A stretch of DNA of 64,000 nucleotides from Solirubrobacter phytolaccae. Its GTDB lineage: Bacteria; Actinomycetota; Thermoleophilia; Solirubrobacterales; Solirubrobacteraceae. This document shows, piece after piece, positions 2,186 through 41,067 of this stretch; position 1 is the first letter of the stretch; every line of letters begins with the position of its first letter. The position numbers and the translations under genes are program-made. The DNA lies in NCBI RefSeq assembly GCF_027587195.1, contig NZ_JAPDDP010000011.1, positions 1-64,000 of the forward strand, read 5' to 3'. The notes under the pieces are model-generated. The model made no database searches. It was given only the letters and a program-made list of their open reading frames with translations, and was not told where the DNA came from.

Positions 2186-3107
<922 letters not shown>

Positions 3108-3111
<4 letters not shown>

Positions 3112-4352
3112 GCCCAGCTCCGCGCGCGGTCGCGATCCTCGCGGCGCTGGCTCTGAGCGCCCTGCTGATCCCGATCGGCATCGTCGCCCTGCTCGCGCTG
3201 GCCCTCGTCGGTGCCGTGGCCGTCGACGCGCGTGCGGCACGCCGCGCCCCGCAGGTCCAGCGGCGCGCGCCCGAGGTCCTCAGCCGCGGCGTCCCCGCGC
3301 CGCTGAAGGTCACGGCCACCGCGCCGGCGGGCGGCTCGGTGCGCGTGCGGCAAGGCGCCCCTGCGAGCGTTGAGGTCACCCCGCGGGAGGGGGAGAGCCT
3401 CGACGCCACCGTCGTCGCCAGGCGGCGGGGGCGCCACGTCCTGCCCGCCGTCGCCACCCGCGCGACCGGCCCGCTCAAGCTCGCCCGCTGGGACCACAAG
3501 GCCTCCGAGCCCACCACGCTGCGCGTCTTCCCCGACCTGCACACCGCGCGCCGGCTCGCGCTCGCCGTCGCCCGCGGCCGCTTCCGCGACCAGGGCGCCA
3601 CCGCGCGCGGCCCGCTCGGGCTCGGCACCGAGTTCGAGCTGATCCGCGACTACGAGCCCGACGACGACATCCGCCAGGTCAACTGGCGCGCGACGGCACG
3701 GCTGGGCCGGCCGATGAGCAACCACTACCGGCTCGAGCAGGACCGCGACCTGATCCTCCTGATCGACGCCGGGCGCCTCTCCACGGCACCGCTGGCCGAC
3801 GCGACGATCCTCGACGCCGAGCTCGACGCCGCCGTGGCGCTGGCGTTCGTCGCGGACGAGCTGGGCGACCGCACGGGCACGGTCGCGTTCGACGACGAGG
3901 TGCGCGTGGTGCTGCCGCCGCAGCGCAAGGGGGGCCAGGCCGTCGTGCGGGCGCTCTACGACCTCGAGGCCAGCCCGGTGGACTCCGACTTCGAGCTGGC
4001 GTTCAGACGCGCAGAGGGCTCCAAGCGCGCGCTGGTCGTCGTCCTCTGCGATCTGCTGGAGGAGGCCGCGACCCGGCCGCTCGTAAGAGCCGTCCCCGTG
4101 CTCACCCGCAGGCACGCCGTCGTGGTCGCCAGCCCGTCGGACCCGGCGCTGGAGGCGATCGCCCGCGCGGCGCCGACCGACCGCCTCAGCCACGCCCGCG
4201 CGACCGTCGCCAACGACGTGCTCGCCGCGCGGGCCCGCGCCGCCGCTCAGGTGCGCGCGGCCGGCGCGCGCGTCATCGAAGCGCCACCGGAGAAGCTGCC
4301 GGCGACCCTCGTCGCGCAGTACCTGCGCGCGAAGTCCCGCGCGATCCTCTGA
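3108..4352 (+). CDS. DUF58 domain-containing protein
   Basis: The 414-residue protein starts at a TTG inside a TTGA overlap with the MoxR gene. Residues 8-38 form two closely spaced hydrophobic segments, and the DUF58 signature DYEPDDDIRQVNWRATARLG lies at 181-200, followed by a VWA-like domain (RDLILLIDAGR). DUF58 proteins are the standard MoxR partner; a link to envelope or export functions is inferred from genomic association. The last 80 bp overlap the 3' end of the convergent SpoIIM gene, so the C-terminal coding sequences of the two genes occupy the same DNA on opposite strands. Confidence 0.88.
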
Positions 4353-19166: not shown

Positions 19167-19215
19167 GGGGTGGGGAACCAAACTCCCGCATACCGCGACT
19201 TTGGTTCCCCACCCC
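19167..19215. repeat. Perfect 16-bp inverted repeat with 17-nt loop
   Basis: GGGGTGGGGAACCAAA at 19167-19182 is exactly complementary to 19200-19215. It lies 26 bp upstream of matrixin copy 1. Shorter GGGGAAC-containing hairpins follow (GGAACG 19243-19248 with CGTTCC 19254-19259). It could be a strong transcription block between the two matrixin genes or part of a mobile palindrome family. Confidence 0.6.
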
Positions 19216-19300
19216 GCGAGACCGGCCTGCGCCATCAAACGGGGAACGCTGCGCGTTCCACAGTCCGGGGAACCCGGCTCACCCGCACACACCGCGCCCG

Positions 19301-19379
19301 CCGCGACGGGTCAAGCAATTCCTGACGACCGCCCGGCCACCTCAGCCGCCGGGGCATGAATTGCTTGACGCGGCGCCTG
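19301..19379. repeat. Dispersed palindromic repeat, copy A (~79 bp)
   Basis: GTCAAGCAATT (19310-19320) and AATTGCTTGAC (19359-19369) form exact 11-bp arms around a GC-rich 38-nt loop. The element aligns, in reverse orientation, with 40471-40550: the arms, the CCGCG-CGG outer edge on one side and the CGGCGCC edge on the other, and the TGACGAC segment just inside one arm are shared. Arms are AT-rich compared with the surroundings. No transposase is nearby, so a REP- or MITE-like non-autonomous element is the best description. Confidence 0.65.
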
Positions 19380-19405
19380 CGGGTGTGGTCAGCCGTTAGG
19401 CCGTG

Positions 19406-20011
19406 TCAGCGGCAGCGCGGATCGCGCAGCGCCGCGGCGCCGCCGTACAGCGAGGCGGCCACGTCCACGTCCGACGGCGCGGGCACGCAGGCCAGCTCCG
19501 CCTTGGTCGGGATGGTGGCCGCGAGCGACGGGGCGCAGCGCGTGTCGAAGGCGCGGGGGGACATCACCGAGCAGTCGTGGCCGTCGCGGTGCTGGAGGCC
19601 GAGGACGTGGCCGAGCTCGTGGGCCGCGACCCACACGGAGAGGGGACGGGGGTCGCCGCCGAGGGTGGAGCGCATGATGATCTCGCTGCGGCCGTCGCCG
19701 GGGCGGCCGATCGAGGTGCTGTAGCCGAGGCAGTCGCGGCCGCAGAGGTCCATCAGGCGGGCGTCGTCACGGCGGACGATGACGTCGGCCGCCTTCTGGT
19801 CGAGGACGACGCGGATGTCGACGTCGGCGCCCGACTGCGTCCAGCGGTCGGCGGCGACGAGCATCGTGTCGGTCATGCCGCTCGAGTCGTAGACGTTCAC
19901 GACGCCGCCCGGCCAGCGGTGGTCGGTGGGGCCGGCCACCGCGGTGAACATCCGCGGGGCGAGGAGGAAGGTGAGGATCGCGGCGAAGCCGATGAACGCG
20001 AGTAGGCGCAC
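19406..20011 (-). CDS. Matrixin-like (M10) secreted metalloprotease, copy 2
   Basis: The 201-residue paralogue of the preceding gene has the zinc site HELGHVLGLQH (His131, Glu132, His135, His141), the Met-turn SVMSPRAF and the same Cys90/Cys94 pair. Both genes share the frame RWPGGxVNV, DxxxVxxRxD(D)xRL and SLYGG near the end, so this is a clear tandem duplication with divergence. I chose the GTG at 20011 because it gives the N-terminus VRLLAFIGF and exactly the length of copy 1; an ATG at 20050 would add 13 residues. The product should be exported or membrane-anchored by its first 25 residues. Confidence 0.82.
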   Translation of the reverse strand: MRLLAFIGFAAILTFLLAPRMFTAVAGPTDHRWPGGVVNVYDSSGMTDTMLVAADRWTQSGADVDIRVVLDQKAADVIVRRDDARLMDLCGRDCLGYSTSIGRPGDGRSEIIMRSTLGGDPRPLSVWVAAHELGHVLGLQHRDGHDCSVMSPRAFDTRCAPSLAATIPTKAELACVPAPSDVDVAASLYGGAAALRDPRCR

Positions 20012-40375: not shown

Positions 40376-40470
40376 CGGGCGCGGGTCGGGCCTGGGGCGC
40401 GCTGTCGGGGGCGGCGCGCACGGCCGAGCCGCGTGCAGGGCTGAAGTCGCGCGAACGGCGAGCACCCCGT

Positions 40471-40550
40471 CTGGCGCCGCGTCAAGAAACTCGTGCGCCG
40501 GCGATGGCGAGTTGTGCGGCCGTCGTCACGAATTTCTTGACCCGGCGCGG
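40471..40550. repeat. Dispersed palindromic repeat, copy B (~80 bp)
   Basis: GCGCCG-c-GTCAAGAAA (40474-40489) faces TTTCTTGAC-c-CGGCGC (40533-40548), a 16-position stem with one mismatch. Read on the minus strand it aligns along nearly its whole length with copy A at 19301-19379 with a few small gaps. Two copies 21 kb apart, in opposite orientation and both in non-coding DNA, suggest a non-autonomous mobile or REP-like family. Confidence 0.65.
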
Positions 40551-40574
40551 CCGGTGCGCTCTTGGGCCAGTGAG

Positions 40575-40612
40575 GTCCGGTTCCCGGACTGCGTGAACGC
40601 TCGTGCGTTCAC
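40575..40612. repeat. Two short perfect hairpins
   Basis: GTCCGG/CCGGAC (40575-40580, 40584-40589; loop TTC) and GTGAACGC/GCGTTCAC (40593-40600, 40605-40612; loop TCGT). Both have tight loops and could stop transcription arriving from rdgB. Confidence 0.5.
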
Positions 40613-40749
40613 CGCTCGCGACTACGAGGGATCGAGCGCGTTCGTTCGGCGGCATCCCCTGGGCGGCATGGACGAGGGGGCGCCGCTCTGAGCTTTCGCT
40701 GAGCGGAACTTGCGCGCGGCACCCCTCCCGGCCGGCCTGGGCAAGGGCG

Positions 40750-40821
40750 GGGCCGCGCCGTCGGGACGGGCCGCGCGGCCGGGACGGGCCGCGCGGCCGG
40801 GACGAGCCGCGCCGTCGGGAC
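40750..40821 (+). repeat. 18-bp tandem repeat, 4 copies
   Basis: Four units of consensus GGGCCGCGCsGyCGGGAC run head to tail; each unit is itself a near palindrome (GGCCGCGCGGCC). It is 90% GC and likely forms strong secondary structure in single strands. Confidence 0.75.
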
Positions 40822-40856
40822 GGGTCCCGCGGCGCGTCGGGCGGGGGAGGGGTGCG

Positions 40857-40889
40857 GCATTCTCGTCACGACAGGTGTGACGAGAATGC
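40857..40889. repeat. 13-bp perfect inverted repeat
   Basis: GCATTCTCGTCAC (40857-40869) and its exact complement at 40877-40889, loop of 7 nt. Confidence 0.65.
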
Positions 40890-40917
40890 GTCACCCCCTG
40901 CCGGTGACACGGATTCG

Positions 40918-40968
40918 GGGGGTGCCGCAATCCGGCGCCACCCCTCGGAGGTCGGTTGCGGCACCCCC
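40918..40968. repeat. 13-bp perfect inverted repeat with 25-nt loop
   Basis: GGGGGTGCCGCAA (40918-40930) and TTGCGGCACCCCC (40956-40968) are exact complements. The arms differ from the neighbouring palindromes, so this is not a copy of the same element. Confidence 0.6.
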
Positions 40969-41067
40969 TCGCGAAGCCGGCCCGAGCCGTGCGAACGGGG
41001 GAACGCATGGCGTTCCAAAGGCCGGAGGCCAGAGCTCGTTCCGGCCGGCGCCGTTCGCGCGTGGCGC

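What the first reader, a model, noticed from the sequence alone, without database searches (positions are those of the whole stretch)
19301..19379. Dispersed palindromic repeat present at 19.3 kb and, inverted, at 40.5 kb
Both loci carry ~80 bp with complementary arms (GTCAAGCAATT/AATTGCTTGAC at 19310-19320/19359-19369; GTCAAGAAA/TTTCTTGAC at 40481-40489/40533-40541). On opposite strands the two copies align across arms, outer GC flanks and part of the loop. They are in intergenic DNA, with AT-rich arms unlike the genome average. This looks like a REP/MITE-type family not tied to any transposase in view, perhaps specific to this lineage. The arm bases differ by compensatory changes (C/A and G/T on both arms), suggesting selection for pairing.
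Basis: seen in the sequence. Interest (0 to 1): 0.7.

Follow-up and report, generated by a model that had tools for sequence, protein, structure and literature searches.

The report
Mobile paired-hairpin repeat between convergent genes
The two palindromes are copies of a real dispersed repeat: pairs of inverted hairpins that have moved into the tiny gaps where two Solirubrobacter genes end tail to tail; it behaves like the known REP/BIME repeats but is larger, differently built and not linked to their usual transposase.

Summary
The arm pattern has 28 places in the window's own genome (0 in the reversed control). A covariance model finds about 65 hairpins at about 45 loci there, about 45 in S. 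taibaiensis, 26 in a third species, 5 each in two more and none in the two most distant species of the genus. A scan of 84,980 species genomes found it only in Solirubrobacter.

The palindrome is one ~113-bp end module. Two modules face each other (31 of 31 pairs are + then -) around a 205-290 bp core holding other hairpins, giving a ~370-510 bp composite. Arms change by compensation almost without G-U intermediates. Composites sit mainly between convergent genes (34 convergent, 18 tandem, 2 divergent), often abutting stop codons. Orthologous sites in other species are empty, with stop codons 0-13 bp apart or overlapping, so the composite moved in.

This works like REP doublets (REPIN/BIME) but fails some membership tests: two RAYT genes examined carry different palindromes, no GTAG/CGTC tag was found and the hairpin is 3-5 times longer. 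No target duplication or autonomous parent was found. New variant of a known kind; the enzyme is unknown.

The parts
19284..19396 (-). H1 end module (full length, imperfect hairpin ~113 bp) of a half-element, reverse orientation
   Evidence: covariance model 113.5 bits, E 7e-25; arms 19303-19324/19355-19376
19167..19283 (-). inner part of the same half-element: small hairpins (GTGAGCCGGGTTCCCCGGACT; GGAACGCG..GCGTTCC) and core hairpin 19167-19188/19194-19215 (GGGGTGGGGAACCAAA...TTTGGTTCCCCACCCC)
   Evidence: shared inner modules in other halves; inverted repeat I5
19391..19405 (-). outer border (AGCCGTTAGG on +; AACGGCTGA-type border on -), ending beside the stop codon (19406-19408) of the upstream minus-strand matrixin-like gene
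40454..40567 (+). H1 end module, forward orientation, 79 bp after the stop codon of the Ham1/RdgB gene
   Evidence: covariance model 115.4 bits, E 2.5e-25; gene position; Pfam Ham1
40568..40917 (+). inner modules and hairpin core, including hairpin 40849-40869/40877-40897
40918..41025 (-). inner part of the second, reverse half-element whose H1 module is missing
   Evidence: this stretch matches other halves of the family on the opposite strand, e.g. G000:C113:53513-53621

Best explanation
The two palindromes are end modules of a non-autonomous mobile repeat of Solirubrobacter that works like an oversized REP doublet (REPIN/BIME). The unit is two half-elements in inverted orientation, each starting at its outer border with a ~113-nt imperfect hairpin (H1), around a core of one to three further hairpins. 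Shown: dispersal, doublet unit, compensatory evolution of the arms, insertion relative to empty sites, restriction to the genus, residence at gene 3' ends and mostly between convergent genes. Inferred: copying goes through a single-stranded hairpin substrate cut by an unidentified enzyme acting in trans; survivors are those that landed at 3' junctions, where they disturb neither coding sequence nor promoter. Several insertions separate genes whose stop codons otherwise touch or overlap, so the hairpins on both strands may also end or protect both transcripts; that step is not shown.
For: 28 exact two-arm places vs 0 control. Covariance model: about 65/45/26/5/5/0/0 modules in seven genus genomes, counts being lower bounds. 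Doublets 31 of 31 in + then - orientation with gaps mostly 205-290 bp. 46 double-change cells vs 13.7 +- 2.5 shuffled, 99.1% of cells paired, only 3 one-sided (G-U) cells, an invariant C.C mismatch kept. Largely compensated arms at one orthologous locus across species. 95.6% identity over 366 bp between two loci with different flanks, starting at the AACGGC border. Sites without the composite: L041 in three species, L045 in G002 and G004, L026 in G005 and G002. 34 convergent/18 tandem/2 divergent vs 2/23/19 for other gaps >=150 bp, p = 6e-10, while element-free convergent gaps have median 0 bp. Published REPs between convergent ORFs likewise lie within 20 bp of both ORF ends (PMC3733652), and REPINs are inverted doublets (PMC3116915).
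Against: No enzyme is tied to the family: RAYT-like genes examined in detail carry other palindromes, and one species with two Y1 transposase genes has no copies. No RNA or DNA experiment was available. About a quarter of own loci are shared with a sister species, so many copies are old and current mobility is not shown. Subfamilies exchange modules, so recombination or gene conversion contributes to dispersal.
Confidence: 0.62

Rival explanations
1. Host-serving bidirectional 3'-end structures: the composites are transcription terminators/mRNA 3'-end stabilisers for convergent genes, kept by selection and spread mainly by recombination between existing copies rather than by transposition.
For: Strong convergent-gene bias and adjacency to stop codons; hairpins valid on both strands (almost no G-U); other, unrelated hairpins occupy the same junction in other species (L026 locus: five species, different occupants).
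Against: No T-tract terminator signature on the element at 40.4 kb and only one weak, near-chance match at 19.2 kb; at one conserved locus terminator-like hairpins already stand outside the element on both sides; the two most distant species manage with none; single halves in tandem gaps show no orientation preference (6 sense, 4 antisense).
Confidence: 0.22
2. MITE of a DDE transposase, with the outer stems as terminal inverted repeats.
For: Inverted ends, ~400-500 bp, clean insertion relative to empty sites; one site reads CTAG on both sides with a single CTAG in an empty site; stop-associated YTAR tetramers are enriched at the borders.
Against: No shared direct repeat at the two ends beyond chance: 7.2 nt in own pairs vs 6.9 +- 0.26 in mismatched pairs; no longer relative with a transposase gene between two H1 modules; the CTAG case can be explained by the two stop codons themselves.
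Confidence: 0.1
3. A family of structured regulatory RNA or sRNA genes.
For: Covarying hairpin, intergenic, a locus conserved in up to four species.
Against: No Rfam match; compensations lack G-U intermediates; folding energy of single copies is only 1.2-1.8 SD better than shuffles; fixed inverted doublets and empty sites are not expected of an RNA gene family.
Confidence: 0.04

Closest known systems
REPINs (inverted REP doublets, e.g. Pseudomonas fluorescens SBW25; PMC3116915)
   Same: inverted doublet is the dominant unit, singles look like decayed doublets, palindromes with compensatory changes, intergenic, lineage-specific copy number
   Different: there a short REP (most abundant 16-mer) with a short spacer; here a ~113-nt hairpin with a 205-290 bp hairpin-bearing core; no cognate RAYT found here
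GTAG/CGTC-tagged REP superfamilies (PMC3733652)
   Same: location between convergent and unidirectional ORFs, <20 bp from the 3' ends of both convergent ORFs; CGTC families also lack a dedicated transposase
   Different: there 20-40 bp, stems 5-13 bp with a terminal tag; here no tag seen, nested long stem with conserved mismatches
BIMEs of E. coli
   Same: mosaic of several palindromic motifs in alternating orientation at gene 3' ends (general knowledge and PMC2817692)
   Different: different motifs, larger modules, one doublet per site with very few clusters
Intrinsic bidirectional terminators
   Same: hairpins between convergent genes
   Different: no T-tract at the window copies beyond one weak match; elements are dispersed similar copies and sometimes sit beyond terminator-like hairpins

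Membership tests
REP / REPIN | high-copy dispersed intergenic palindrome | tested here: met
   about 65 modules at about 45 loci, intergenic
REP / REPIN | doublets in inverted orientation as the unit | tested here: met
   31 of 31 pairs + then -; similarity block starts at the element border
REP / REPIN | palindrome of 20-40 bp | tested here: not met
   full module 113 bp with a 27-pair consensus; 90- and 46-bp shorter forms exist
REP / REPIN | GTAG-type or CGTC tag at one end of the hairpin | tested here: not met
   no invariant GTAG/GGAG at the outer foot in the 30-copy alignment; a CGTC occurs inside the stem only
REP / REPIN | RAYT gene flanked by the same palindrome | tested here: not met
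   no convincing H1 beside the RAYT-like loci examined; the two examined in detail carry TTAAACGTCCAGGACGTTTAAGTT or AAAGGCCCnGGGCCTTTAAGT. RAYTs in unassembled regions cannot be excluded
BIME | mosaic of distinct palindromic motifs combined in different orders | tested here: met
   three core hairpin types exchanged among elements, found almost only near H1 (D 25/0, G 19/0, E 33/7 elsewhere)
BIME | contains Y/Z PU (REP) units, binds gyrase/IHF/Pol I | not testable with these tools
   sequence motifs differ; binding needs experiments
DDE MITE | target-site duplication | tested here: not met
   7.16 vs 6.87 +- 0.26; one ambiguous CTAG case
DDE MITE | autonomous parent with the same ends | tested here: inconclusive
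   no H1-H1 pair spans a gene in the fetched loci, but the draft assembly is broken at many elements
Intrinsic terminator | GC hairpin followed by a T-tract | tested here: not met
   0 found at 40.3-41.15 kb; 1 weak match at 19.2 kb vs 0.2 +- 0.6 expected
Known RNA family | match to an Rfam model | tested here: not met
Integron attC site | R/L box layout beside cassette genes with an IntI integrase | not tested
   considered from memory only; inverted doublets at scattered convergent junctions do not resemble a cassette array

The most novel reading that the evidence does not exclude
A new kind of mobile repeat whose insertion is itself directed to the stop-codon junction of convergent genes (often 0-4 bp, sometimes the overlapping CTAG), moved by a machinery that is neither RAYT nor DDE, supplying both genes with a shared two-way 3'-end hairpin array.
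Probability: 0.13. Interest if true: 0.75.

Novelty: new variant of a known kind. Interest (0 to 1): 0.45.

Why it matters
REP-like elements are best described in Proteobacteria; nothing on them was found for Solirubrobacter in the papers searched. This family has an unusually large hairpin with conserved mismatches, modular cores and clean empty sites in related species, and it is not explained by the RAYT-like genes examined. That makes it a tractable case for two open questions: what moves REP families that lack a dedicated transposase, and why such repeats collect at gene 3' ends (targeting, filtering by selection, or a job in transcription).

Tried and rejected
Chance matches: rejected. 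RAYT-driven REP: RAYT-like loci examined, no H1 beside them, other palindromes found. DDE MITE: no target duplication, no autonomous copy seen. Rfam RNA: none. Terminator with T-tract: none beyond chance. Sense orientation in single halves of tandem gaps: 6 vs 4, no bias. Lower similarity between the two halves of a doublet than between halves of different doublets, as an avoidance of perfect palindromes: mean not lower (0.70 vs 0.68). Literature on Solirubrobacter palindromes: nothing relevant.

Full report
What was checked. The two ~80-bp stretches carry the stated arms at the stated places. The pattern GTCAAGNAA-N(25-55)-TTNCTTGAC is found twice in the window and never in 100 shuffles. In the window's own genome (7.74 Mb, 169 contigs) it has 28 places, and the reversed control has none. 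A plain DNA comparison shows the similarity spans most or all of the 111-bp query in about 30 other places. The finding is real and much larger than the window showed.

The module. Thirty copies were oriented and aligned (A1). The consensus is an imperfect hairpin of about 113 nt: an outer stem GAnCACACC...GGYGYGnT, a mismatch-rich middle, and an inner stem CGCGTCAAGNAANNCNTG...CANGNNTTNCTTGACCCG around a ~35-nt variable loop. Seven of 27 pairs have changes on both sides. There are 46 double-change cells against 13.7 +- 2.5 in shuffles, 99.1% of cells are paired, and slid versions reach at most 10 double-change cells and 48% pairing. Only three one-sided (G-U) cells exist. That fits a palindrome that must work on both strands or as DNA. 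A C.C mismatch at the foot of GTCAAG is invariant in all 30. At one orthologous locus the reverse half is present in four species with arms that differ from species to species; they stay largely complementary in G000, G004 and G001. Folding energy of single copies is not remarkable (z -1.8 and -1.2), as expected at 70% G+C, so the evidence for pairing is covariation, not energy.

The composite. A covariance model was run on the fetched loci. In every one of the 31 loci with exactly two modules, the left one is on the + and the right one on the - strand, mostly 205-290 bp apart. The unit is therefore two half-elements facing each other: border AACGGC, H1, then smaller hairpins (GTGAGCCGGGTTCCCCGGACT; GGAACGC..GCGTTCC), then a core of one to three strong hairpins of at least three sequence types. 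The core types occur within 450 bp of an H1 module 25, 19 and 33 times, and elsewhere in 399 kb 0, 0 and 7 times, the last being loose matches. Shortened H1 forms of ~90 and 46 bp exist. The 19.3-kb copy is a reverse half filling the gap between two matrixin-like genes on the minus strand. The 40.5-kb copy is a forward half after the Ham1/RdgB gene, with a core and a second half whose H1 is lost.

Distribution. Seven genus genomes carry, after merging the two strands, about 65 (own), 45, 26, 5, 5, 0 and 0 modules. The search scores only the best 150 candidates per genome, so these are lower bounds. The exact pattern was absent from 54 further relatives of the family and order except for one place in G052 whose arms do not extend. 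A two-arm pattern scanned over 84,980 species genomes found only Solirubrobacter taibaiensis; the tool may leave out the own genome and very near ones. The two genomes without copies are the most diverged at the RNase PH/rdgB locus (79-80% identity against 85-88%). About 12 of 45 own loci lie within 750 bp of a contig end, where a few per cent would be expected from 169 contigs; the repeats probably break the assembly and copies may be missing.

Insertion. At L041 the orthologous junctions in three species lack the ~417-bp composite. In G002 the two stop codons are 4 bp apart and in G004 they overlap in CTAG. At L045 the junctions in G002 and G004 are 0 to about 13 bp, while G001 has a single core-type hairpin there instead. 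At L026 the same junction holds the composite in G000, a ~40-bp perfect hairpin in G002, a different hairpin in G001, other sequence in G004, and overlapping genes in G005. The outer ends show no shared direct repeat beyond chance; a CTAG on both sides at L041 may simply be the two stop codons. Two loci 27 kb apart share 95.6% over 366 bp starting exactly at the border. About a dozen own loci also carry an element at the orthologous place in G002, so older insertions are inherited.

Location. Element-free convergent gaps have a median length of 0 bp and total 1.1 kb, against 21.7 kb for the other two kinds. Many modules start within 20 bp of the sense gene's stop codon (28 of 74 ends). Published REPs show the same habit: between convergent ORFs they lie <20 bp from both 3' ends (PMC3733652). 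The location alone is therefore not new.

How it most likely works. Shown: dispersal of a doublet unit, insertion, compensated hairpins, residence at 3' junctions. Inferred: a trans-acting enzyme recognises the hairpin in single-stranded form, as proposed for REPINs, and selection removes insertions elsewhere. The Y1 (RAYT-like) genes of the genus do not look like that enzyme: two examined in detail are bracketed by other palindromes, and none examined has a convincing H1 next to it. A second role as a two-way 3'-end structure is plausible, because the insertions separate touching genes, but the window copies lack a T-tract terminator beyond chance and one locus keeps terminator-like hairpins outside the element.

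Limits. Gene calls are my own and unannotated; the genomes are drafts; covariance-model E-values are rough; no expression data exist here; the enzyme is unknown. Compensatory counts include inherited subfamily differences and are not independent events.

Noticed in passing
L122:2783-2811 and 3378-3405 (G002); L102:2100-2134; L103:1782: The RAYT-like gene of G002 (L122:2847-3413) is flanked on both sides by TTAAACGTCCAGGACGTTTAAGTT; single copies occur in the own genome. This looks like a classical RAYT-REP pair in Solirubrobacter.
   Followed up: partly
L104:2600-2660 and 3199-3223 (own genome C149): Another RAYT-like gene (2675-3235) with AAAGGCCCnGGGCCTTTAAGT-type palindromes near both ends.
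   Followed up: partly
L168 near 2330 (G002); L160 near 2480 (G005): Single perfect hairpins (AACATGAAGGTGCCTGGCACCTTCATGTT; AACCTAAAGGGGTCAGGCCCCTTTAGGTT) occupy convergent junctions in species that lack the composite there: a separate REP-like repeat class.
   Followed up: no
L106 and L052, just outside the left border: The border hexamer AACGGC is expanded into a tandem array of at least seven copies.
   Followed up: no
ends of contigs C36, C44, C88, C91, C99, C109, C113, C129, C131, C142, C165, C23 of the own genome: About a quarter of the element loci lie within 750 bp of a contig end; the repeats probably break the assembly.
   Followed up: partly
G003:C7 and G005:C21 at the rdgB locus (L133, L134): In the two species without the repeat a further gene (resembling a cation-efflux protein by eye, not searched) lies between rdgB and the small minus-strand gene; it is absent there in the other species.
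   Followed up: no
window 40740-40830: Short tandem repeat of the type GGGACGGGCCGCGCGGCC inside the core of the 40.5-kb element.
   Followed up: no
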